Shown here: in pieces, positions 561 through 22,286 of the stretch
Position numbering within the stretch: position 1 is the first letter of the stretch
Layout of the letters: every line of letters begins with the position of its first letter
IMG/VR virus record: IMGVR_UViG_3300038713_000011
Location: 1 to 22,423 of that record
DNA length: 22,423 nt
Source of the DNA: a virus
Reading direction: 5' to 3' (one strand)
Program-made: the position numbers and the translations under genes
Notes under the pieces: model-generated
Told to the model about the DNA's origin: nothing
Database searches by the model: none
The model's input: only the letters and a program-made list of their open reading frames with translations

Positions 561-740
561 ATGGAAGATAAAAGCTACGAACTATTTTCAGAATTAGTTG
601 ACAGAGAACATGAGAGTTTGATCCCTGATAAAACTATACCCACATTTAATATATGGGATGTAAGAAAGGAGAACAATGAATATTCTAGAACTAAAAGACA
701 AATACCTAGAGTCACAAGACTTCAAACTTCTAGCAAGTAA
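561..740 (+). CDS. 59-aa small protein overlapping the integrase start
   Basis: 59 aa from ATG at 561, one base after the previous stop. The first ~40 residues are acidic (MEDKSYELFSELVDREHE) and the C-terminus is basic (SRTKRQ, then VTRLQTSSK). The last 65 bases overlap the integrase in another frame, so either the C-terminus is genuinely out-of-frame overlapping or the frame is fortuitous. The integrase Shine-Dalgarno lies inside this ORF. Small genes just upstream of a phage integrase sometimes encode excision factors, but there is no recognisable winged-helix motif here. Confidence 0.4.
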   Translation: MEDKSYELFSELVDREHESLIPDKTIPTFNIWDVRKENNEYSRTKRQIPRVTRLQTSSK

Positions 741-1584
741 AACACAAAAGGATTACATCTACTTCTTAGACAAGATGTTATCCACACCTGTGAATGGTAG
801 GCACGTGTCTAGATCAAGAGTGTCCACCTTTACAGGTGTAAAAGCTAGACGAGCATACGAGACTTGGCTCAAGAGAGGTGTGTCCTTTGCTAATCATATA
901 TGCTCTGTGTCCAAGAAGATGTATTCATATGCAAATGAAATGGGTTACGCAGAAACTAATCCGTTCAAGACATTTAAATGCAAGACAACACACAATAGAC
1001 GTGTGACTTGGACAAGGCAGCAGGTCAAAACTTTTTTAGACGAGTGCTATTTATCCTTTGAATACAGGAACTTAGGACTAATAGTTCAGATGGCATATGA
1101 ATGGTGTCAACGAGTTGGAGACATGAGAATGTTAAAGTTTAGCAACATAGATTTTGATACAGGAGTATTGAATCTTGAGCAATCTAAACGTAGAGCATTG
1201 GTGCATCTACCCATAAGTGAAGACTTACTAGAAATGTTAATACAACAGAAGGAAGAGTTTGGTTTTCAAGAATGGGTAGCACCATATCCCTTTGCTAGAC
1301 GTAAGTCATACGAGCCTTACACCCTACACAGGCTATCAAAAGTAGCACGAAGGGTGTTAGATTTGTGTGGACTACCAAAAGAACTACGTATAGCAGACCT
1401 GAGAAGGACAGGTACAACAGAAATGGTTGAGGCAGGTGTCTCTATGGCACAGATTATGTCAGTTACAGGGCATTCTACACCCAATAGTGTAAAGCCTTAC
1501 ATGAAAAATACTTATGCATCTGCAGAAAATGCCTTGACAAAAAGACAAACCTATGTTAAAAGCACTATGGATGTGCCACGATGA
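676..1584 (+). CDS. int: tyrosine site-specific recombinase (phage integrase)
   Basis: 302 aa, a normal size for the family. It would catalyse integration and excision between attP and a host attB through a 3'-phosphotyrosyl intermediate. An N-terminal SAM-like DNA-binding domain covers about residues 1-105; the catalytic domain covers about 110-285. Visible catalytic residues are R146 (CQRVGDM), K171 (EQSKR), R243 (ADLRRTG), H266 (TGHS) and nucleophile Y275, nine residues after H266 as expected. The first histidine of the usual HxLR box is replaced by A240. The start follows AGGAG at 667-671. Its stop overlaps the primase start as ATGA. No attP core or tRNA-like sequence is recognisable nearby, so lysogeny is inferred from this gene alone. 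Confidence 0.93.
   Translation: MNILELKDKYLESQDFKLLASKTQKDYIYFLDKMLSTPVNGRHVSRSRVSTFTGVKARRAYETWLKRGVSFANHICSVSKKMYSYANEMGYAETNPFKTFKCKTTHNRRVTWTRQQVKTFLDECYLSFEYRNLGLIVQMAYEWCQRVGDMRMLKFSNIDFDTGVLNLEQSKRRALVHLPISEDLLEMLIQQKEEFGFQEWVAPYPFARRKSYEPYTLHRLSKVARRVLDLCGLPKELRIADLRRTGTTEMVEAGVSMAQIMSVTGHSTPNSVKPYMKNTYASAENALTKRQTYVKSTMDVPR
1534..1562 (+). promoter_or_regulatory. candidate extended -10 promoter before the primase
   Basis: A perfect TTGACA (1534-1539), a 17-base spacer ending in TGT (1554-1556, an extended -10 TGn) and TAAAAG (1557-1562, 4/6). It lies in the integrase 3' end and would allow primase and helicase transcription independent of the integrase. The -10 is weak. Confidence 0.28.
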
Positions 1585-12021: not shown

Positions 12022-12244
12022 CTTGTCATGGTATCTTAAATGGACAGGCTCTATGTTAATTATGTCAGGGATTATCTGTAGATCGGCAGGTGTTCTGCCT
12101 TTCTACGATTTGGTAGCCTCGTGTATAGGCACAGGATTACTAGCAGGTATGGCTTACATATGGCATGATAGAGCACTACTCACTGTTAATGTCGTAGCCT
12201 GTGCTGCCTTGGCTATGGGTGTGTTGAGGTCTGTGTTTACCTAG
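11996..12244 (+). CDS. small three-helix membrane protein
   Basis: 82 aa. A short polar N-terminus (THDLSWYLKW) and three hydrophobic segments at about 15-30, 36-54 and 60-80, separated by short loops, the second loop holding HDRA (57-60). This is a membrane protein; I recall similar unnamed proteins in marine phages. A holin role is conceivable given size and topology, but no lysis genes are visible beside it, so I leave function open. It is the last rightward gene and overlaps the end of the leftward 714-aa gene by 8 bases. Confidence 0.72.
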   Translation: MQKITPTHDLSWYLKWTGSMLIMSGIICRSAGVLPFYDLVASCIGTGLLAGMAYIWHDRALLTVNVVACAALAMGVLRSVFT

Positions 12245-14381
12245 CCATCAATCCACCACGATTTAACTTAGGTGTTATTTCCATGATGACTTCTTTGTAT
12301 TGTCGTGGTGACAAAGATAATATCTTTTCTTCTGTTGCAAGTTTATAATCTAATATGTTACCTTTTGTTTCACGTAGTGTAGATTGCAACTCATTAATAA
12401 ACTTCTTTGCACTAAAATCTTTAGGTGCTTCTCTATCTTGATATCCCTTTAATCTTTTTGGAGCAGTTTGCATTACACCTCTACTAGGTCTCTCTAATAA
12501 AGCATTTAATACTGTCATATTATTTTTCTTTTCTCCTTTTGGTAATACGATACCTAGACCTTCAACAAGTCCAGCTAGATTTGGAGATATTGCTAATTCA
12601 TCTATGATCTCATCGTAGCCACCTCTCGCTCCTGCAGTTCTTGTAAACTTGGCTAGTTCAAGAGCACTATTAAAATAATCTTTAACTAAATCATAACCTT
12701 TCTTTTGATTTACAGGATCTCCAATTAAGGCTCTGTTATTAACACTACCTATAGATAGTTCTAGTTTTTTGTGTTTGTCAAATGCCTCGTTTGCTTTTTC
12801 AACCATAGCTAACATCTTTGGATCATCTACGACTTTCTTTGGTTTAGTGAGAAAATCAGGTCTAGTAAACGCTACCTCTGCCTCTGTATGTGCAGACTTA
12901 GGTAGCTTTATACCTAGAGTGTCATCTGTCATAACATCTCTATATTTATTAAACAATCCCTCTCTAAGATCTTTATCACGTGAATATAAATTGACAATCT
13001 TGTTATAATCATCAGGTGTCATACTTTTAAATTTACCATAAGGTAATTCTGTAAATAATAAATTCTCTACAGTTCTACCCATTTCATCTGTTCCCATTGC
13101 CATATCACCTACCTCACTTCCACCCGGAGTTGTAAAAGCAGGTTTTACAGATGTAACAGGATCAAGTGACATTGATAATGCAGGTGTTCCTAGTTCTGCG
13201 TGAATAGGTGTTTTTCTAGTGGCTAAACCTAGATATGTTTTATCTGTTAATTTTCCTGTGCTATCTTCATATCTATCAAAACCACGTCTTGTTATATCAT
13301 CAATAAATGTTTTATCAAGTTCCACTACCTCTGTTAAATCTTGTCTATTTCTCTTTGTTAGTTCTGCCTCTATATCTCTAAGATCTACTTTATTATTATC
13401 AAGTAACTTAACTACACCATATGTCTCACCCTCATAATTATTAATAGCAGATGGTGTTCCTTTTAAATATACTTCACCTGCCTCTGCATTAGTTTCTAAA
13501 GATATTGTGTCATTATAAACTTTAGGAGTAGGGGGTACATTAGAATCCTTACTTGCATTTGCTAATACAGGAAATTGTATTTTAGCACCTGCATATTTAT
13601 CTATCTCATCTACATCTTTACCTACCTTCATACCATAAGTAGCTATATCTATGATGGGATTACCATCGTTAGCATCTACTATCTCTGTAAATATTTTTGA
13701 GTTGTCCATGAATGTTCTTGCTAATTCATTTGCTTGATGATCTCTGTCTATATATGTGCCTAGTTTTGGTGATGCAGTAAACTGACCCATAGCAGTGCCA
13801 TGATATAATATCTCTTTTCTAGGTTTGTCAAGCATCTTAATACGTTTCTTATGCTCTTTCTTTTTAAAATTACTCTTTATTTCTTTTATTTGGCTCTGTC
13901 GTTTTGTTGATATATTTTTATTAAACTTATCACCTAATTCTTTCTTTACATAATCACTTGTATTTACAAGTATATCAGTGCCTGTCTTCCTGTCACCTCT
14001 TTTAAATGCATCTATAGCCATTTGACGTAGCATATTCTTACCTATTCTAGATACAAAACCTAATCCGGGAATCAACCCCATTGTTATTAACCCTGTAAAT
14101 GCACCACCAAGACCCATCTTAATTAAATCTCTTTCACCATAACCTGCCTGTAGTAATTCATAGGCACGTGTGTAATCTTCAGGTGCATCTTTAAATGCAA
14201 TCACATCACCTGTTATAGGTGCAGTTGCTAAAGCAAAGTCTCTCACATCTTTTATGGTTATAGGTTCTACACCTTGAGCCTGTCTTTGTATGTCTGTTAT
14301 ACCTGCTTCACGTTCTTCTCGTTTACGTTCTGCCTCTGCAAACATTCTATCAGTTTCAAGTCCTAGTTCAAATCCCCTCAT
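12237..14381 (-). CDS. 714-aa virion-block protein with possible ADP-ribosyltransferase-like motifs
   Basis: 714 aa, the last gene of the leftward operon; its ATG overlaps the 1158-aa gene stop (ATGA). Residues 1-40 are charged and helical. A hydrophobic Gly-rich stretch lies at about 90-110. A basic helix region (150-190) precedes ILYHGT (191-196), followed by LGTYI and HQANELARTF. Further on, GTPALSMSLDP (398-408) with F416 and the acidic VENLLFTELPYGKF (438-451) resemble the STS strand and Glu region of ADP-ribosyltransferases. Neither pattern is complete, so an ART-like fold is only a hypothesis. The protein ends in GGLMAR. Being downstream of two probable internal virion proteins suggests it is packaged and ejected, as T4 Alt is. 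It could equally be a structural protein with no enzyme activity. Confidence 0.7.
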   Translation of the reverse strand: MRGFELGLETDRMFAEAERKREEREAGITDIQRQAQGVEPITIKDVRDFALATAPITGDVIAFKDAPEDYTRAYELLQAGYGERDLIKMGLGGAFTGLITMGLIPGLGFVSRIGKNMLRQMAIDAFKRGDRKTGTDILVNTSDYVKKELGDKFNKNISTKRQSQIKEIKSNFKKKEHKKRIKMLDKPRKEILYHGTAMGQFTASPKLGTYIDRDHQANELARTFMDNSKIFTEIVDANDGNPIIDIATYGMKVGKDVDEIDKYAGAKIQFPVLANASKDSNVPPTPKVYNDTISLETNAEAGEVYLKGTPSAINNYEGETYGVVKLLDNNKVDLRDIEAELTKRNRQDLTEVVELDKTFIDDITRRGFDRYEDSTGKLTDKTYLGLATRKTPIHAELGTPALSMSLDPVTSVKPAFTTPGGSEVGDMAMGTDEMGRTVENLLFTELPYGKFKSMTPDDYNKIVNLYSRDKDLREGLFNKYRDVMTDDTLGIKLPKSAHTEAEVAFTRPDFLTKPKKVVDDPKMLAMVEKANEAFDKHKKLELSIGSVNNRALIGDPVNQKKGYDLVKDYFNSALELAKFTRTAGARGGYDEIIDELAISPNLAGLVEGLGIVLPKGEKKNNMTVLNALLERPSRGVMQTAPKRLKGYQDREAPKDFSAKKFINELQSTLRETKGNILDYKLATEEKILSLSPRQYKEVIMEITPKLNRGGLMAR

Positions 14382-17300
14382 AGCTTTCTCTTTCTTTTAG
14401 ACATTATGCCTTTTTCTCTAAGTGTTTCAGCTACACCTGCTCTACTTAATGCCCACTGTAATACATTTACTCTATCGTCAGTGTCTGCATTTACTAAAGT
14501 TAAATCTCTAGTATTTAAAATTGAAAAGTTATCTATTAAATTATTATCTGCATCTGATTCACCAAGTATATAATATTCATCAGTCTTTAATATGTTCCTA
14601 AACTCTGCATCGATAGCAGCTCTTTCTTCCCTAGGTAGTTTTCTATAATTTCTTATGTCGTTTTCACTATAAGGCAAATCAAAATCTTTTGCTAAATTAT
14701 CTAATTTAAGTAAGGCAGCCTCTCTTGCTCCGGGAACATCAGGATCAGGACTGCTAAATATATTTCTTTTTGCATATCTTTTTAAATAATTTCTTTTTTC
14801 TGCATTTGATTTAAGACTTAAATATGATTCATCCCTAAGTATAACATCTGCCAACCTTTCATTTAGATTTACATCTTTAACATTACCACTTAACTCTTCT
14901 CTTATGAGTCTATCTACTAAATCGTTTGGATCTCTTCTATATAAATCATAGTATTGTAGATTTAAATTACGCATTTCTTTTTCTAATAAATTTAACTTAG
15001 GTAATCTAGTAAATCCTGTTAGTTGTTTTTCTAAAGGATTTATAGCTATAACTTCACCTGATCTAAACGGATTAACTAGAGGAAGATCATATTCTTTTGC
15101 ACCAAAGTATCTACCTAGTGCAGTGTTAGGACCAAAGTCAGGCATAGCACGAGTGCCTCTATTATATATAATTTTAAAGAAATCTATTTCACCACCGGGT
15201 CTAGTTTCAGGAACATATCTAGCAAATTTATCAAACTGACTGTACACATCTTTTACCACTGACAATGGTATGGTATAAGTATTAACTAAATTAGCTACAA
15301 ACTCTCCAAATATTTTAGAACCTTTTTCTCCTATAAAATTACCCTCTGCAGTGAAGTCATCAAACAATTTATCTATAGCATAAATACCATAACCTGCTCT
15401 GAAAGAAGAACCAAACAATGCCTGTAATGAATCTTGCATATATTGTCTAGGACTTGTAAACACTTCTGATAATCTTTTACCTGATGCATCTTTTCTATCC
15501 ATTATATCTATGAATAGTCCTGCAGGGTTAAATAAGAAAGTGTCATCTAACTTTACATCTTTACCCTCTTCACTAGATTTATTATATCTTAACATAACAT
15601 CTGCTGCCAAAAGATAAGGAGCAAAAGGTCCGTATGTAGGTCTTCCGTCTACTATTTTACCTGTTTCATCTTTGAACTCATACCAATATGTGCCTATTCT
15701 ACCATCATCATCCATCTGTTCTTTTCGCCAGTTGTATGCAGTTGTTAGCATCATAAGACCCATGAATTGTTTTGCAGCCATTTTTCTGTAATCGTCTGCA
15801 TTTTTACTAGCTATTGATTTTAAATATCCTTGTTTAGTTCCAATCCCCTCTAAGTTCATCAGTCCTAATAAAGGTGTGTGTTCATATAAGAACTTCATTT
15901 GATTTGCTACGAATCTTGGGAAAGGCAACACTGATGATATCACGAAAGGTACATTTCTATGTGCATCAATAGTTACTTTAGCAACTTTGCTAAAAAATCC
16001 ATCACCTTTAAATGATTGTTGGTAAACAAACTCTAGTGCATCTTGCATAGAACCTTCTAAAGTTTCTTTACTTATAGTATTAAACTTACCATCTTTAATA
16101 AGTTGAATTAAATCTTTACCATCATCTGCTAATCTTCTTCTAAGTGATGCAGTAAACATTGCCTGTTTAAAAAAATTATCAGACATAGTATTTAAAAAGT
16201 TTGCACTAGTTCCTATCTTAGCTAATGCACCCTCTCCTGCTTGAGCAGATAAATCTGCAGCATCTCTGAATAACACAGAGGCACTATCAGGCATTGTGTT
16301 TTCAAATAACTTTCTAACCACTTGAGCCTCATATGGATTTAACATATATTTAACCACATCTAAAGAGTCCATAGGATTTTTTTTGTTAAGTAAATTATAT
16401 ATGCCACGTGTTCCTACATCAACCACAACTCTAAACAAAGCATTGGCATTGTTACGCATGGTAGTAGCAGGTTGTGATGTCATTAAACCTAGTCTTAATT
16501 TATCTAAGTCTTTAAGTAATCCTAGTTTTCTTTTATTCTCTATTACTTCTTTGGCTTGACCTTTAGTTACTTTAGTCAATCCTCTTTGCTCTAACTCAAC
16601 TATACTATTTAATAGTGAATTTACCTTTTCTTTAGATACTTCAGGATCTATTTGTTTTTTTAAAAAGCCATGATAGCCTAATTTTCTACCTGCATCTGAT
16701 ATGTCTGCTAAATATATTAGAGAGAATTGATCGTATGTTAAGTTATGTTCTTTTAATATTGTGCTAAGTTCATCAAACTTTAAGTCACCTTTTCCTATTG
16801 CTCTTGCTAATCCTTCAGTGATTCTATCACCTTTAGTTAAATTACTTTTTATTCTATTCTTTACTTTGATTGCAGCAGCAGATAAATTTTCATAGAAATC
16901 AATATCTAAATTGTCTACACCTTTTTCTTGAGCTAGTGATCTACCCATCTTAACTTTATCAGGATCAAGTGGTCTTTTCTTTACAGGTTTTTTCTTTATA
17001 ATTCTTTTTAAACCTGCCTTAGTCATTTCATATGTATCAGGTATTAATTCATTCAAGGCATCATTTAAAAAATCTATATCTTCATCTGCTCTTACACTTT
17101 TTAAAAAGTCTTTTGATTTTTTATTAGCAGCATCTGCTACAACTTTAGATGCCTTCTCTGCTTCTGATAATAATATGTTGGCATCAATAGCCTTTTTAGT
17201 TTGATAGTATCCTGCACCTGCATTAAACAATCCACCAAATGTAGCCTGTATACCTGCTTGTGTTGCAATTCTACCTGCATCAACCTCATCTGTTAATGTT

Positions 17301-17854
17301 GTTTCTACTTTAGTTAACTCTTGAGCACCACCTTGTACTGCACCTATTGTGCCTTCTACTGCAGCACCTTTAGCAGCACTCTTAGCTATTTCTTGATTTA
17401 ATAACTTACGTATGCCTAGCTTAGTTAATTGATTAGCTCCTGTTGATGCAAGTTTACCTGCACCTGCAGTAAATAAACCTGCATATGTTGAAGGAGCAGT
17501 AAGTATACCACCTGCATAATCTTTAATAGTTTCAATATTAAAACTATCACCTTCCATATTTTCATATAGTTGTATTAGATTTGCAAACTTTATTTTTTCT
17601 TGAAGGTTGGAATTTTGAGCATACTCTAAGTCACGTATAGCAGTGACTTCATTTACATTTTGATATCTGAAATGCTCTAGGAATTGATCATATATTTTTT
17701 CAGGGGTATCTAACTCTGAATCTTTGTACCCCTCTCTCTGCACTAGAAAGTCATAAGCATCATCTAAAAAATCGTCATCTTTAGTTAGCTTTTCTTTCTT
17801 TTGTTCTTCAGGAGTTAATCTATTGTAATCCCTAATTTGATTATCTTGTAACAT
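14378..17854 (-). CDS. large internal virion / ejection protein (inferred)
   Basis: 1158 aa. The start is supported by AAGGAG overlapping the upstream stop. Residues 1-110 are charged and helical. About 112-215 is a long Gly/Ala-rich, mildly hydrophobic region (GGILTAPSTYAGLFTAGAG; later GAAVEGTIGAVQGG), a pattern common in phage proteins that enter the host envelope. A long helical middle follows. A second mixed region has FMGLMMLTTAYNW and YGPFAPYLLAADVML, and the C-terminal part has NPLEKQLTGFTRLPKLNLLEKEM and a basic end (MSKRKRKL). No peptidoglycan hydrolase motif is evident. Size, composition and position after capsid/tail-type genes fit the T7 gp15/gp16 role (core protein ejected with DNA), but this is by analogy, not recognised homology. 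Confidence 0.75.
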   Translation of the reverse strand: MLQDNQIRDYNRLTPEEQKKEKLTKDDDFLDDAYDFLVQREGYKDSELDTPEKIYDQFLEHFRYQNVNEVTAIRDLEYAQNSNLQEKIKFANLIQLYENMEGDSFNIETIKDYAGGILTAPSTYAGLFTAGAGKLASTGANQLTKLGIRKLLNQEIAKSAAKGAAVEGTIGAVQGGAQELTKVETTLTDEVDAGRIATQAGIQATFGGLFNAGAGYYQTKKAIDANILLSEAEKASKVVADAANKKSKDFLKSVRADEDIDFLNDALNELIPDTYEMTKAGLKRIIKKKPVKKRPLDPDKVKMGRSLAQEKGVDNLDIDFYENLSAAAIKVKNRIKSNLTKGDRITEGLARAIGKGDLKFDELSTILKEHNLTYDQFSLIYLADISDAGRKLGYHGFLKKQIDPEVSKEKVNSLLNSIVELEQRGLTKVTKGQAKEVIENKRKLGLLKDLDKLRLGLMTSQPATTMRNNANALFRVVVDVGTRGIYNLLNKKNPMDSLDVVKYMLNPYEAQVVRKLFENTMPDSASVLFRDAADLSAQAGEGALAKIGTSANFLNTMSDNFFKQAMFTASLRRRLADDGKDLIQLIKDGKFNTISKETLEGSMQDALEFVYQQSFKGDGFFSKVAKVTIDAHRNVPFVISSVLPFPRFVANQMKFLYEHTPLLGLMNLEGIGTKQGYLKSIASKNADDYRKMAAKQFMGLMMLTTAYNWRKEQMDDDGRIGTYWYEFKDETGKIVDGRPTYGPFAPYLLAADVMLRYNKSSEEGKDVKLDDTFLFNPAGLFIDIMDRKDASGKRLSEVFTSPRQYMQDSLQALFGSSFRAGYGIYAIDKLFDDFTAEGNFIGEKGSKIFGEFVANLVNTYTIPLSVVKDVYSQFDKFARYVPETRPGGEIDFFKIIYNRGTRAMPDFGPNTALGRYFGAKEYDLPLVNPFRSGEVIAINPLEKQLTGFTRLPKLNLLEKEMRNLNLQYYDLYRRDPNDLVDRLIREELSGNVKDVNLNERLADVILRDESYLSLKSNAEKRNYLKRYAKRNIFSSPDPDVPGAREAALLKLDNLAKDFDLPYSENDIRNYRKLPREERAAIDAEFRNILKTDEYYILGESDADNNLIDNFSILNTRDLTLVNADTDDRVNVLQWALSRAGVAETLREKGIMSKRKRKL

Positions 17855-17864
17855 TTAAAACTCC

Positions 17865-19262
17865 TTAGAGTCCATAATCTGAGGGTTTGAGGTTGTTATC
17901 TAAAAACATTTGTCTATACTTAGATTTTGCATCTGATAAGTCTTGAAGGTATTTCTGTTTTGCAGCATTACGTCTACTTTGCTTGACCGATTGTCTTTTT
18001 TCTTTGTTGATTTCTATTAATAATTTATCATAAGCATCTTTAATATTTTTTACTTCATCTTTATACATCTTATTTATTTGTCTTCCCCTAAGAGGTTCTA
18101 CTGTAGTGTCTTTCTTATTTTTTTTAACAGGACCTGTATTTTCAGATATTTTCTCAAGACCTACATCTTGTAGTGATTTTAATATAAATCCTTGAGGTCT
18201 ATCTTTACCTTTTCCTTCTGCCACATCTCCTTCAACTTTAAAGTTTTCATTGATAACTTGATCTATGGCACTTTGATTTGTATAGAATCTAGGATCATCT
18301 AATTTAGGACCTTCTATTTTTAGTGACAATGCTTTCTGTTTTATTATTTGAGCTATTCTTGGTACTACCTTTTCATATTTTTTAGCATCTTGTGCATAGA
18401 TAACATCACCTTGAGTGCTAATACTAACTGATAATCCTAATCTCTTAGCTACGGCAGCCTCTGCTACTTTTGCCATTTTTTCTTCACCTATGTCTTCTTT
18501 AGCTCCAAGAGATGCTATTCTTTTAGCTTCTTTACCTGCCTCTGTAAATATATCTTTTTTAGTATCAAAGTATGCCTTAAGTTCTTTTTCTTTTGCAGTA
18601 TCAACTGCCTGACTAACATCTGTAGATTTTACTATGTTTTGTATTCTTGGTGTTAAATCTACACCTTTTTCATCACTAAACATTTCACCTGATACAAAAG
18701 AGGTTATAGGTCCTGATGCAGGTTGAGAACGAATTTGTTTCATTTGTAAATCTATATTTTTTGCAGGGATTGCTAGAGCTTCTGCAAGTTCACTTAATGT
18801 CATGTTAGGCACTTTAGATGTAGGAGTTTCTGCAGTAAGATCTGTATTTTCTTTTAACATAGTTACTATGCCATTTAAATCGTCTAAATTAAATTTAGTT
18901 TTTATCTTTTCTAAAGTACCACCTAACCCTCTCTGTTGTATTAAAGCTATATCTGCATTTTCTAATTCAGGAAACTTACCCTTCAATGCAGTTAGTGATT
19001 CAAGATTGCTATTTACTCTATTTTTTCTTGTTGCTTTATTTTTAGTTATTAAATCTGTTATACTAGATGCAGTTGTTTTAATTAGATCATTAGCATCTTG
19101 TCTATCTAGTTTACCAAATTCTGCTTCTTTATCATACAGTTCTTTTACTAGATATGGATCTTTTCTAGCTAATGCAATAGAAGGCAAGGCAACTGCAAGT
19201 GCTCTTTTAAATCTACCACCAACACTTTTATCAGTTAAAAATGATACTTCTTTTTCTGCCAT
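17865..19262 (-). CDS. 465-aa helical virion-block protein
   Basis: 465 aa. The ATG overlaps the upstream stop (TAATG), and the Shine-Dalgarno (AGGAG) lies inside the previous gene's last codons. It is mainly helical and Lys/Glu/Asp-rich, with one hydrophobic N-terminal stretch (RALAVALPSIAL at 19-30) after a short polar leader. The C-terminus is a strongly charged coiled-coil region (about 385-455, with KEKRQSVKQSRRNAAK). There is no enzyme motif. It is probably an internal virion or core protein partnering the 1158-aa protein, inferred from adjacency and composition. A 157-aa antisense frame at 18802-19275 is not considered real. Confidence 0.72.
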   Translation of the reverse strand: MAEKEVSFLTDKSVGGRFKRALAVALPSIALARKDPYLVKELYDKEAEFGKLDRQDANDLIKTTASSITDLITKNKATRKNRVNSNLESLTALKGKFPELENADIALIQQRGLGGTLEKIKTKFNLDDLNGIVTMLKENTDLTAETPTSKVPNMTLSELAEALAIPAKNIDLQMKQIRSQPASGPITSFVSGEMFSDEKGVDLTPRIQNIVKSTDVSQAVDTAKEKELKAYFDTKKDIFTEAGKEAKRIASLGAKEDIGEEKMAKVAEAAVAKRLGLSVSISTQGDVIYAQDAKKYEKVVPRIAQIIKQKALSLKIEGPKLDDPRFYTNQSAIDQVINENFKVEGDVAEGKGKDRPQGFILKSLQDVGLEKISENTGPVKKNKKDTTVEPLRGRQINKMYKDEVKNIKDAYDKLLIEINKEKRQSVKQSRRNAAKQKYLQDLSDAKSKYRQMFLDNNLKPSDYGL

Positions 19263-19768
19263 TAATCTCTCCTAGCCATTAAACCCATAGGCTCTTCTTC
19301 CTGTTTATCTTCTTCTACAACTTTTTCTTCTTGTGGTTTATCTTCACTTAATTCTTTTTGGAACTTAGCAAATGCTGCTTCAGATGCAGAGTCATTTATC
19401 TCTATATCCTTATCTCTTTCCATACCTGTGGTATATTCTATACCTGCTCTGTCGCCAATCAACATAAGCATTTCCATGATTACAGGTATAAGTAACATAC
19501 CTACATCGATAGTGTGTTTACCTTGTAACACAGTTGCTAATTGTATATTGTTTGCCATTAATGTAATAGGCATACCTGTTTCCATCAAGTTGATAGCTTG
19601 TTCTACAAAAGCCTCATCCTGCATACTTGTTACATAATATTGTGCAGCTTGACTAACAGTTGGGTATTGTGGTGGTGTTTGCCAAGGTCTAGCACCTACC
19701 TCGTGGGTCATTGCCATGCCCGGAATGGGTGCTTCAAATATAGGTTCGTCTCTGTTTCCGTATCTCAT
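19262..19768 (-). CDS. 168-aa virion-block protein
   Basis: 168 aa; the start overlaps the 78-aa gene stop (ATGA). A Pro-rich N-terminus (EAPIPGMAMTHEVGARPWQ, then PPQYP at 33-37) precedes helices with a hydrophobic segment at about 89-105 (VGMLLIPVIMEMLMLIG). The last ~50 residues are an acidic tail (KPQEEKVVEEDKQEEE) ending in GLMARRD. The 'PIPG..(M/L)T...G.RPWQ.PPQ' opening is one I associate with marine phage structural proteins, but I cannot name a family. The role is probably minor structural or assembly, inferred from its operon. Confidence 0.7.
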   Translation of the reverse strand: MRYGNRDEPIFEAPIPGMAMTHEVGARPWQTPPQYPTVSQAAQYYVTSMQDEAFVEQAINLMETGMPITLMANNIQLATVLQGKHTIDVGMLLIPVIMEMLMLIGDRAGIEYTTGMERDKDIEINDSASEAAFAKFQKELSEDKPQEEKVVEEDKQEEEPMGLMARRD

Positions 19769-20001
19769 GTTTCTATTTCTTCTTTACCATTTAATCTCTC
19801 ATTTTGTATAGCTTCAAAAAAATTCATGGCATCATTAAATGGATCATTTTGTTCCATAGTAGGCATATTTTTTTTCATAGACATATCTCTAGACAGTAAA
19901 CCTTTGGTTGTAGGTGTTTCTGTTTGATTTTGTATATCTCTAGTAAACTTTTTAAAGTTATTAAACTTATTATAAATATTTGCTGAAGGGTTTGTAATCA
20001 T
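19765..20001 (-). CDS. 78-aa protein of unknown function
   Basis: 78 aa between two virion-block genes, joined by TAATG upstream and ATGA downstream. It is polar, with Asn- and Lys-rich beginnings (SANIYNKFNNFKKF), a Met-rich middle (DMSMKKNMPTMEQ) and a helical acidic end (FFEAIQNERLNGKEE). No motif was recognised. Strict coupling with both neighbours supports it as a real gene. Confidence 0.65.
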   Translation of the reverse strand: MITNPSANIYNKFNNFKKFTRDIQNQTETPTTKGLLSRDMSMKKNMPTMEQNDPFNDAMNFFEAIQNERLNGKEEIET

Positions 20002-22286
20002 TATCCAAAAGGTCCTCTAATAATTGCAGCACCTAGTGTGCCTAGCATACTACCGATGGCAGTTGATCCTGCAGCTTTCTTAGTCTGTTCTGCAGTATAT
20101 TGTTGTGCTTCTTTACTAATGTTAGCTACACCTAGTGCATTGATTCTATCTTGCTCATTCTCTGCACTCTTCCATGCCCACTCCATAGTGTCTGCATAAA
20201 ATGACCATAAGTCATCATATGTTTCATTGGATATGTCAAGAACTGCTTTTGCATTTAGTTCGTTAGCACGATTGATAGCAGCAGTATCTGCAGTGGCTAA
20301 CTCTCTTCTCCATACTGCATTGTTCTGTGCGATAGCTATTTGATTTTGTGCATTAAACTGATCTCTTGCATTCATCACCTCTGCATTAAATCTTGCAAGT
20401 GTATTCATTTCACCTGCATTGAACTGATCCTGTGCATTTGATTGTGTAGCATTAAACTGTTCTACCTGACTTCTCAAGTTAGCGAAGAACTGATCTACTT
20501 GGTTTTGTGAGGTTGCATTAAACTGTTGGGCAGCATTTAGGGCAGCCTGATCTGTTAATATACTTTGTGTTAGTTGTTGCATATTAAACATACCTGACTG
20601 TTGCTCATTAGATAAGTTTGCCATATCTACTTGTAGGAATGCCTTTGCATTTTCTACTGCAGCCTGTTGTCTATTTGTTAAGTTACTAGTGTCTAGACCT
20701 GAAAGTGCAGATGCTTCTGCTAATACAAGAGCTTGTCTATTTGACAAGTTTTGTAGATTTAATGTATTAGCTATCCTACTATTTTCTAGTTGTACTTGTT
20801 GCTCTGCAGTAAAGTTTCTATTAGCTATATCACTTATCTTAGCAGCATTCTGCACCCTAGCTTGAAATGCCTGATCAAACTCTTGACCTATAAATGATGC
20901 TCTTTGTTGAGCAGCTAACATAGCACGTTGTTGTCTATTAGATAAGTTTTGTAATTCAAATGTTCTTACAGTGTTTGCATCTGCCTGTGCTATAGGTAGT
21001 GCAGACTCCATCGCAGCCTGTACGAGTGCTTGTCCTGCAATACTAGATGCACCCAAGCCTCTCTGTTGCATTACTGCCTGTACACCTCTGATTGCACCTG
21101 ATGCCCATGCAGGTGGATTAGTTGCATCAAAGTTAGCAGTTAAACTTGCTAGTTGTCCTGCTACAGTTGCCTGATCACTTGCAGTAGAAGTCGCAGCATC
21201 TATTTGTTCTGTAAATGTTTTTGCTACTTCTGCGTTAGTAACTGAATCAACTAACTCTCCTTCACGAATAGCTCGTTGAGCAGGACCTGACATAAGTATT
21301 GCATTGCCTTGAGCAGCATCTAAATTAGCCACACTACTTGCAGTTGCTTGTGCTGCGAGTATCTGAGCATTATCACTTAAATCTGTTTGAGCAGCTTGAT
21401 TACTAGCTACTGCATTTTGCACTGACTCTTGAGCCACTACAGGTGTTACTTGTGCAGCAGTTCCTGTTGTTGCTCCTGCCTGTTGTAATCCTGCTTGAGC
21501 AGTTTGACTAATCACATTAGCCTGACCCATACCTATTCTAGGGTCAATTAACTGTGATTGTTCAAAGGGTGTTAGTTCAGGTTGTGTGACTGCACCTACA
21601 GGTAAAGCACCTGTCTGTGCTCTTACTACAGTTGCATCTTGTATACCTTTTGGACTACCCTCTGTGCCAAACACAGGTATCTGCCCTTGTCCAACTCCCA
21701 TAGTAGGCACGTAGGCTTGTTGTCTATCTGTTCCTTGGGTTGCAGGTATTTGTTGTGCAACAGTTGTTTGAGGTGCAGGTGCTACTGCATCTCTTGGGTC
21801 TACAGGAGTAGGTGAAGGGATTCCCGGACCCTTAGTAAAATCTATTCTATTTGCATCTTGAGGTTCTGCTCTTTTAAAACTTTCTGCACCAATAGATTCC
21901 ATATAATCTCTATATGCACCTCCTATAACAGGATTTGAAAAGGTATAGGTTTTTCCTCCTACAATAACAGGGTCAATAACTGCAGGTGCAGGAACACCAA
22001 ATAAGTTATCACCTCCACCCATAACTTGTTGTTTATATATATCAGATTTTAAAAAGTCTTGATAGTTAGGTGCAGATGTCATGCCCTGTTGCATACCCCC
22101 CTCTGCCATTCTAACATAACCACCCTCTGCCATTCTTCTTGCAGCATCTTCAAAGACAACCATCTGTCTTTTTTTGTCAGGGTTCTGTTCTAGGTAATTA
22201 TCAAAGTTTACCATGTCACCTTTGTAACCAAGTCTATTGGCTATCTTCTGCATACCACTCGGTTTAAATCCTGTAAACATTGCCAT
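20001..22286 (-). CDS. 761-aa repeat protein of the virion block (hendecad helix)
   Basis: 761 aa; the ATG overlaps the upstream stop (TAATG). The N-terminal ~65 residues include a double RMAEGG motif (51-56, 59-64). About 95-250 is Pro/Gln/Thr-rich and low complexity. About 250-435 is Ala/Gln-rich helix, including GLGASSIAGQALVQAAME. Residues 447-688 are an unbroken 11-residue repeat: first 22-residue units opening NLSNRQQ, then 11-residue units with QF/NA. An aromatic patch (DDLWSFYADTMEWAWK at 691-706) and a small apolar, glycine-containing tail (GSMLGTLGAAIIRG) follow. This suits a long helical virion component that touches membranes. There is no enzyme motif. A tail, core or ejection role is inference from position and composition. 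Confidence 0.8.
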   Translation of the reverse strand: MAMFTGFKPSGMQKIANRLGYKGDMVNFDNYLEQNPDKKRQMVVFEDAARRMAEGGYVRMAEGGMQQGMTSAPNYQDFLKSDIYKQQVMGGGDNLFGVPAPAVIDPVIVGGKTYTFSNPVIGGAYRDYMESIGAESFKRAEPQDANRIDFTKGPGIPSPTPVDPRDAVAPAPQTTVAQQIPATQGTDRQQAYVPTMGVGQGQIPVFGTEGSPKGIQDATVVRAQTGALPVGAVTQPELTPFEQSQLIDPRIGMGQANVISQTAQAGLQQAGATTGTAAQVTPVVAQESVQNAVASNQAAQTDLSDNAQILAAQATASSVANLDAAQGNAILMSGPAQRAIREGELVDSVTNAEVAKTFTEQIDAATSTASDQATVAGQLASLTANFDATNPPAWASGAIRGVQAVMQQRGLGASSIAGQALVQAAMESALPIAQADANTVRTFELQNLSNRQQRAMLAAQQRASFIGQEFDQAFQARVQNAAKISDIANRNFTAEQQVQLENSRIANTLNLQNLSNRQALVLAEASALSGLDTSNLTNRQQAAVENAKAFLQVDMANLSNEQQSGMFNMQQLTQSILTDQAALNAAQQFNATSQNQVDQFFANLRSQVEQFNATQSNAQDQFNAGEMNTLARFNAEVMNARDQFNAQNQIAIAQNNAVWRRELATADTAAINRANELNAKAVLDISNETYDDLWSFYADTMEWAWKSAENEQDRINALGVANISKEAQQYTAEQTKKAAGSTAIGSMLGTLGAAIIRGPFG
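20223..20948 (-). repeat. 33-bp coding repeat (11-residue periodicity, 22 units)
   Basis: The DNA encoding residues 447-688 of the 761-aa protein. Twenty-two consecutive 11-residue units occur with no insertion or deletion. Asn is at position 1 in 16 units and Asp or Glu in four more. The same 33-bp spacing is visible on the plus strand as recurring 'cattaaactg'-type words. Units have diverged, so the array is old rather than freshly duplicated. Confidence 0.85.

What the first reader, a model, noticed from the sequence alone, without database searches (positions are those of the whole stretch)
20223..20948. Gap-free 22-unit hendecad repeat with a 22-to-11-residue switch
From residue 447 to 688 the 761-aa protein can be cut into 22 units of exactly 11 residues with no indel. 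The first part alternates as 22-residue pairs (NLSNRQQ-type openings at 447, 513, 535 and 557; a degenerate one at 491). The second part has 11-residue units with Phe at 589, 600, 611, 622, 633 and 644, most followed by NA. Hendecads give right-handed or nearly straight long helices, and 22-mers built of two 11-mers are the plan of membrane-active apolipoprotein helices. With an aromatic patch and a glycine-containing apolar tail behind it, this could be a long helical rod or membrane-lining element in the virion. The membrane role is inference.
Basis: partly seen in the sequence, partly recalled or inferred. Interest (0 to 1): 0.68.

Follow-up and report, generated by a model that had tools for sequence, protein, structure and literature searches.

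The report
Phage helical rod with 11-residue ruler
A marine short-tailed phage carries a probable DNA-delivery protein with a long helical rod built of exact 11-residue units; across hundreds of related phages the rod grows or shrinks only by whole units, and its longest forms step by blocks of ten units.

Summary
The repeat is real. Residues 447-688 of the 761-aa protein form 22 units of 11 residues with no indel (lag-11 and lag-22 identity z = 6.1 and 7.2). The window is an HMO-2011-type podovirus and the protein is the homologue of HMO-2011 gp25. In 341 relatives carrying both conserved anchors that flank the repeat (289 distinct regions), anchor spacing takes 21 values from 118 to 756 residues. 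Twenty of the 21 values, and 288 of 289 regions, agree modulo 11; two control stretches of the same proteins show no such rule. The segment before a conserved switch unit differs by exactly 10 hendecads (110 residues) in two ladders: 12/22/32/42/52/62 and 18/28/38/48 units. AlphaFold2 gives a near-continuous helix from 416 to 755. The repeats contain no proline, are 30% Asn+Gln, and have no single amphipathic face, so the apolipoprotein/membrane idea is not supported. Gene order, a predicted-fold match of the 1158-aa partner to a cyanophage internal virion protein, and an S74 cap shared with annotated DNA-ejection proteins favour an ejection (pilot) protein. I propose a multi-helix shaft or conduit, analogous to the phiX174 H tube. 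Oligomeric state and virion location are untested.

The parts
20001..22286 (-). 761-aa hendecad-rod protein, homologue of Puniceispirillum phage HMO-2011 gp25 (phage1322_25)
22128..22286 (-). residues 1-53: small conserved three-helix N-terminal domain (GFKPxGMQKIAxxMGYxGxMxxFDxYLxxNP)
   Evidence: AF2 block pLDDT 70-88 over residues 1-50; alignment A2
21447..22124 (-). residues 55-280: low-confidence, variable linker
   Evidence: pLDDT mostly under 50; control distances across it follow no modulo-11 rule
20970..21113 (-). residues 392-439: conserved helix-turn-helix N anchor (PPAWASG...QRGLGASS...ESALPIAQADA) that starts the rod
   Evidence: invariant P392, W394, G410, S414, S415, P431; turn between helices 396-408 and 416 onward
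20553..20948 (-). residues 447-578: 12 hendecads arranged as 22-residue L-type/A-type pairs (the zone that grows by 10-hendecad blocks in relatives)
20223..20552 (-). residues 579-688: conserved switch unit DQAALNAAQQF, then 11-residue Phe-ended units (QF-NA type), running into the C anchor
20103..20351 (-). residues 646-728: conserved C anchor (IAQNNAVWRRELATADTAA...LWSFYADTMEWAWKSAENEQDR)
20004..20102 (-). residues 729-761: weakly apolar Gly-containing C-terminal tail (in CRP-3, CRP-212 and CRP-738 relatives an S74 or S74-like stretch follows it)
19262..19768 (-). 168-aa partner protein, found in 202 of 221 loci including all 16 phage records examined; ends in a GLMARR tag
17865..19262 (-). 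465-aa protein at the gp15-like position by order and size (not by detectable homology)
14378..17854 (-). 1158-aa protein at the gp16-like position; predicted fold matches a cyanophage internal virion protein

Best explanation
The protein is most likely an internal (ejection or pilot) protein of a short-tailed phage, encoded first in an ejection cassette, at the place held by T7 gp14 / P22 gp7. A small N-terminal domain and a flexible linker precede a helix-turn-helix, which opens into one long helix made of hendecads. Several copies are proposed to pack side by side through hydrophobic seams on opposite sides of the helix, leaving Asn/Gln-rich polar faces. That would form a straight shaft or conduit which leaves the capsid with or before the DNA and extends the short tail through the envelope. 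SHOWN: the exact 11-residue register; its preservation over 20 lengths; expansion in blocks of 10 hendecads; absence of proline; a predicted long helix; conserved synteny. INFERRED: presence in the virion and ejection (from cassette, partner fold and shared S74 cap), oligomer number, a hollow rather than solid rod, and any DNA contact.
For: Register: 288 of 289 distinct regions share the same anchor spacing modulo 11, over 20 lengths; two control stretches in the same proteins spread over all residues modulo 11; at least 37 length changes on a quick tree. Blocks: 12/22/32/42/52/62 and 18/28/38/48 units before the switch, with internal lag-110 identity up to 0.63. Helix: AF2 helix 416-755 with short breaks; 0 Pro in 24,772 residues. 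Wheel: first harmonic 0.08, second 0.60, h2 > h1 in all 88 proteins; heptads of the phiX174 H tube give 0.07 and 0.48. Cassette: same order (rod gene, ~170 aa, ~450-900 aa, ~1100 aa) in HMO-2011, CRP-1, phiM6, RHph, CRP-738 and others; T7/P22 ejection genes run gp14-, gp15-, gp16-like (PMC8954989). 1158-aa partner: BFVD match to 'Internal virion protein' of Synechococcus phage S-RIP1, E 1.7e-6, prob 1.00. S74 cap: CRP-738 homologue matches phrog_4287 'DNA ejection protein'; Salmonella phage 7-11 gp20 bears that cap; its homologue SU10 gp22 (29% identity, 2e-34) is among gp20-24, present in the virion and lost on genome release (PMC9509320).
Against: No sequence homology to T7 gp14, 7-11 gp20 outside S74, or any PDB chain. 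gp14-like proteins surveyed are 181-240 aa and vary by less than 30%, while here proteins run from 459 to 1660 aa. S74 caps belong to trimeric fibres elsewhere (general knowledge), which would suit a solid trimer. The 38-134 nm range of straight helix lengths implied by the family (my estimate at 1.5 A per residue) does not fit one constant envelope thickness. The AF2 model is a monomer with mean pLDDT 53. The two-seam argument is modest: permutation P = 0.20 for the second harmonic alone, 0.008 for high second with low first. I found no virion proteomics for any member.
Confidence: 0.5

Rival explanations
1. Solid trimeric (or hexameric) coiled-coil rod inside the virion, working like a siphophage tape-measure protein: a length-defining or channel-filling rod that leads the DNA out, rather than a hollow tube.
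For: Some tape-measure proteins have tandem repeats with a possible unit of 11 residues marked by Trp/Phe (PMC3271669); here Phe recurs every 11 residues in the second zone. S74-type caps in relatives are trimeric in known proteins (general knowledge). Weak BFVD matches to tape-measure proteins.
Against: Host phages are podoviruses with short tails, so there is no long tube to measure. No recognised tape-measure family was hit. No single hydrophobic seam on the family wheel.
Confidence: 0.2
2. External tail needle or fibre stalk: a trimeric coiled coil whose length adapts to surface glycans, folded with help of an S74 chaperone in some relatives.
For: S74 caps are typical of fibres and spikes (general knowledge); a relative hits a long-tail-fibre PHROG through that cap. 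The gene lies just downstream of tail-fibre genes in HMO-2011. Strong length variation suits a surface-reaching part.
Against: About 220 low-confidence linker residues precede the rod. The gene is linked to the 168-aa and 1158-aa genes, and the latter matches an internal virion protein. In SU10 the needle is a different gene (gp18), and the relative of the S74-bearing protein is among the ejected proteins.
Confidence: 0.15
3. Internal core or DNA-spooling protein that stays in the capsid and organises packaged DNA.
For: N/Q-rich helices could touch DNA; internal cores are known in T7 and epsilon15.
Against: Rod length varies about six-fold while cultured relatives have 53-69 kb genomes; no basic character (net charge -1.5 per 100 residues).
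Confidence: 0.1
4. Membrane-lining or membrane-lying amphipathic helix of the apolipoprotein type.
For: 22-residue pairs of 11-mers; a Gly-containing apolar tail.
Against: First wheel harmonic about zero, 15% charged residues, no proline, N+Q 30%; tail hydropathy low.
Confidence: 0.05

Closest known systems
phiX174 DNA pilot protein H (H tube, PDB 4JPP)
   Same: Long helices with 11-residue units, N/Q-rich with regularly spaced amides; no single hydrophobic face in its heptads on the same calculation; proposed role as envelope-spanning DNA conduit (PMC7354561).
   Different: H has only three hendecads, then heptads, and belongs to a tailless ssDNA phage. No sequence relation was found. A decamer and lumen are shown for H, not here.
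T7 gp14 / P22 gp7 class of ejection proteins
   Same: First gene of the ejection cassette; helical; T7 gp14 residues 37-139 form a hexameric helical channel (PMC8954989); a Gly/Ser-containing stretch between two helices (inference).
   Different: Known members are 181-240 aa with little size variation and no hendecads; no detectable homology.
phiEco32-like DNA injection proteins (Salmonella phage 7-11 gp20, SU10 gp22)
   Same: S74 C-terminal cap shared by 7-11 gp20 and some relatives here; clustered with other large late proteins; SU10 gp22 is among the proteins lost on genome release.
   Different: No hendecad periodicity in 7-11 gp20 (lag-11 identity 0.08) and no homology outside the cap.
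Siphophage tape-measure proteins with possible 11-residue Trp/Phe units
   Same: 11-residue period with aromatic markers and length change by duplication (PMC3271669).
   Different: Those set tail length in long-tailed phages; the present phages belong to a short-tailed group.

Membership tests
HMO-2011 gp25 family (this protein family) | N anchor, hendecad rod in fixed register, C anchor, partner gene downstream | tested here: met
Podovirus ejection (pilot) proteins | encoded in a cassette with large internal virion proteins | tested here: inconclusive
   order conserved in the annotated phages read; 1158-aa partner matches an annotated internal virion protein by predicted fold only; suggestive, not proof
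Podovirus ejection (pilot) proteins | present in the virion and released at infection | not testable with these tools
   no proteomics found; only indirect through SU10 gp22
T7 gp14 family | sequence homology to gp14 | tested here: not met
   hmmsearch E 0.99, hhalign probability 0.1
T7 gp14 family | about 200 aa with predicted transmembrane helices | tested here: not met
   761 aa; only 1 of 88 tails reaches KD 1.6
phiX174 H tube | long helices containing 11-residue units | tested here: met
phiX174 H tube | decameric tube with amide/guanidinium-lined lumen | not testable with these tools
   no multimer prediction available; N+Q 30% of residues
phiX174 H tube | sequence homology | tested here: not met
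   no PDB chain matched the family profile at E up to 1
Tape-measure proteins | long tail tube whose length it sets | not tested
   no virion image for this contig; cultured relatives are described as podoviruses
Apolipoprotein-type 11/22-mer amphipathic helices | one lipid-facing apolar side, with proline-punctuated 22-mers (from general knowledge) | tested here: not met
   first harmonic 0.08; 0 Pro in 24,772 residues

The most novel reading that the evidence does not exclude
A hollow hendecad helical conduit in short-tailed dsDNA phages, functionally like the phiX174 H tube, whose length is quantised in whole hendecads and, in long forms, in 10-hendecad (about 16 nm) modules, so that phages tune conduit length by block duplication.
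Probability: 0.25. Interest if true: 0.82.

Novelty: new variant of a known kind. Interest (0 to 1): 0.62.

Why it matters
A family of abundant marine phages appears to carry a natural molecular ruler: a helical rod whose unit (11 residues) and super-unit (110 residues) are held over 20 lengths and roughly six-fold size variation. It gives a tractable system for asking what sets the length of a phage DNA-delivery device, and a natural design series of very long hendecad assemblies. It also puts a structural hypothesis on a protein annotated 'hypothetical' throughout the HMO-2011 group.

Tried and rejected
Pfam, PHROG and PDB sequence searches with the protein, its relatives and its profile gave no informative hit except Peptidase_S74 in relatives. 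phrog_6121 matched CRP-3 over residues 258-618, but no match remained once S74 was cut off, so only the cap carries that link. T7 gp14 and 7-11 gp20 showed no relation outside S74. A weak SU10 gp22 match to CRP-3 (6e-5, composition correction off) was discounted as low complexity. Foldseek with the low-confidence rod model gave a 'DNA transfer protein' at 5.5e-4; long helices match many things, so it was not relied on. The 1158-aa model found nothing significant in the PDB. An iterated C-anchor HMM drifted onto the repeat and was replaced by a non-iterated one. A first pass with text anchors gave three false spacings of 140. No match in plasmids. A relation between rod length and host or envelope could not be tested because most hosts are unknown.

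Full report
WHAT WAS CHECKED. The window is a 22.4 kb fragment of an HMO-2011-type podovirus. The 761-aa protein (20001..22286, minus strand) is homologous to HMO-2011 gp25 and to proteins of CRP roseophages, HTVC pelagiphages, Sinorhizobium phage phiM6, Rhizobium phages, Vibrio phage CHOED and Aeromonas and Pseudoalteromonas phages; in every record with an annotated gene it is unassigned, apart from one automatic label 'huntingtin'.

THE REGISTER IS HELD ACROSS RELATIVES. I collected relatives from viral contigs, phage records and genome contigs and measured the distance between two conserved flanking anchors by profile HMM. In 341 proteins, 289 distinct regions, the distance takes 21 values between 118 and 756 residues. 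Twenty values and 288 regions leave the same remainder modulo 11; the one exception (L130) has a single extra residue next to the C anchor. Controls in the same proteins, N-terminal domain to N anchor (41 distinct distances) and C anchor to protein end (35 distinct), spread over all remainders. A quick tree of the anchor sequences needs at least 37 changes of length; tree error can inflate that number, so the safer statement is 20 distinct lengths obeying the rule. Insertions and deletions that break the 11-residue phase have been almost completely excluded.

ZONES AND BLOCKS. A conserved switch unit (D-Q-A-A-x-N-A-A type) separates an N-terminal zone, where L-type and A-type units alternate as 22-mers, from a C-terminal zone of Phe-ended 11-mers. 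In two groups the C-terminal zone is constant (8 or 10 units as counted) while the N-terminal zone steps by exactly 10 hendecads: 12, 22, 32, 42, 52, 62 and 18, 28, 38, 48. The longest forms show recent-looking duplication of the 110-residue block (lag-110 identity up to 0.63). The shortest relatives have 2 to 8 units in this zone, and L112 appears to have expanded its Phe-type units instead.

STRUCTURE. AlphaFold2 with 27 sequences gives a small confident N-terminal domain (residues 9-53), a low-confidence linker, a helix-turn-helix at 396-416 and a near-continuous helix 416-755 with short breaks. Mean pLDDT is 53, as might be expected for one chain of an oligomer. The hendecads contain no Pro or Cys in 24,772 residues, 30% Asn+Gln and 15% charged residues. 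Position 1 of the unit is Asn in about 70% of 2,332 units. On an 11/3 helical wheel the hydropathy has almost no first harmonic (0.08) and a second harmonic of 0.60; every one of 88 representatives has h2 > h1. The heptads of the phiX174 H tube, taken from the published table, give 0.07 and 0.48. This argues against a single lipid-facing side and is compatible with helices packed between two neighbours. A permutation test is only suggestive (0.008 for high second with low first harmonic, 0.20 for the second alone).

CONTEXT. Gene order is conserved: rod gene, ~170-aa gene, ~450-900-aa gene, ~1100-aa gene. The 168-aa partner occurs in 202 of 221 loci and in all 16 annotated phages tested. The 1158-aa protein has no recognised family, but its AF2 model (pTM 0.61) matches predicted structures of phage proteins, including an annotated internal virion protein of Synechococcus phage S-RIP1 (E 1.7e-6). 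T7/P22-class ejection genes are ordered gp14-, gp15-, gp16-like (PMC8954989). Relatives in CRP-738 and CRP-3 carry a Peptidase_S74 cap after the apolar tail; CRP-212 has a similar C-terminal stretch. The CRP-738 cap matches phrog_4287, 'DNA ejection protein', and Salmonella phage 7-11 gp20 bears it. Its homologue SU10 gp22 is one of five proteins present in the virion and absent after genome release (PMC9509320). This is indirect evidence that the present protein is an ejection protein.

MECHANISM. My preferred reading is a multi-copy helical shaft or conduit, deployed from the capsid to extend the short tail. The comparison with the phiX174 H tube (PMC7354561) is one of working principle, not kinship: a tube of helices that begins with hendecads and is lined with amide and guanidinium side chains. 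The main rivals are a solid tape-measure-like rod and a tail needle or fibre. Helix lengths across the family would range from about 38 to 134 nm if straight (inference from 1.5 A per residue), more than one envelope requires at the long end; what sets the length is the open question. The membrane-lining idea is not supported by composition, wheel or tail hydropathy.

VERDICT. Observation confirmed and extended well beyond the window; interpretation partly supported; function still inferred. I rate it a new variant of a known kind (an ejection protein with a modular, length-quantised hendecad rod). The register and block rules are the strongest results and stand independently of the functional assignment.

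Noticed in passing
window 19262-19768, 14378-17854 and 12237-14381 (all -): Three late proteins end in a similar short tag: GLMARR (168 aa), GIMSKRKRKL (1158 aa), GGLMAR (714 aa). In 270 distinct 168-aa homologues 174 carry G[LFI]M in the last 45 residues against 4 in shuffled tails; in the 1158-aa family only 4 of 53 carry the stricter form. Possible packaging or docking tag.
   Followed up: partly
window 22100-22130 (-): The rod protein has a MAEGGYVRMAEGG motif near its N terminus; similar A[RKE]GG[VY]V[RK]M-like motifs occur in 98 of 312 relatives.
   Followed up: partly
L095, L090, L092 (CRP-3, CRP-738, CRP-212 relatives): C-terminal Peptidase_S74 (endosialidase-type chaperone) cap confirmed by Pfam on CRP-3 and CRP-738; CRP-212 has a similar stretch by eye. 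Its presence on a helical rod protein is unusual.
   Followed up: partly
window 12237-14381 (-): 714-aa protein after the cassette is an orphan with homologues in only 5 of the first 221 loci.
   Followed up: no
window 676-1584 (+): Tyrosine-recombinase-like ORF at the place of the HMO-2011 gene annotated 'phage integrase'; role in this phage group unclear.
   Followed up: no
L225-L228: The same two contig lengths (55,371 and 62,825 bases, one pair sharing a contig name) are binned in a Flavobacteriales MAG and in a Neomarinimicrobiota MAG: phage contamination of MAGs.
   Followed up: no
hendecad regions of relatives: Glycine is not spread evenly over the hendecad: most at positions 10 and 3 and none at position 4; in the longest forms it recurs at fixed units of each 110-residue block, perhaps hinges or packing points.
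   Followed up: partly
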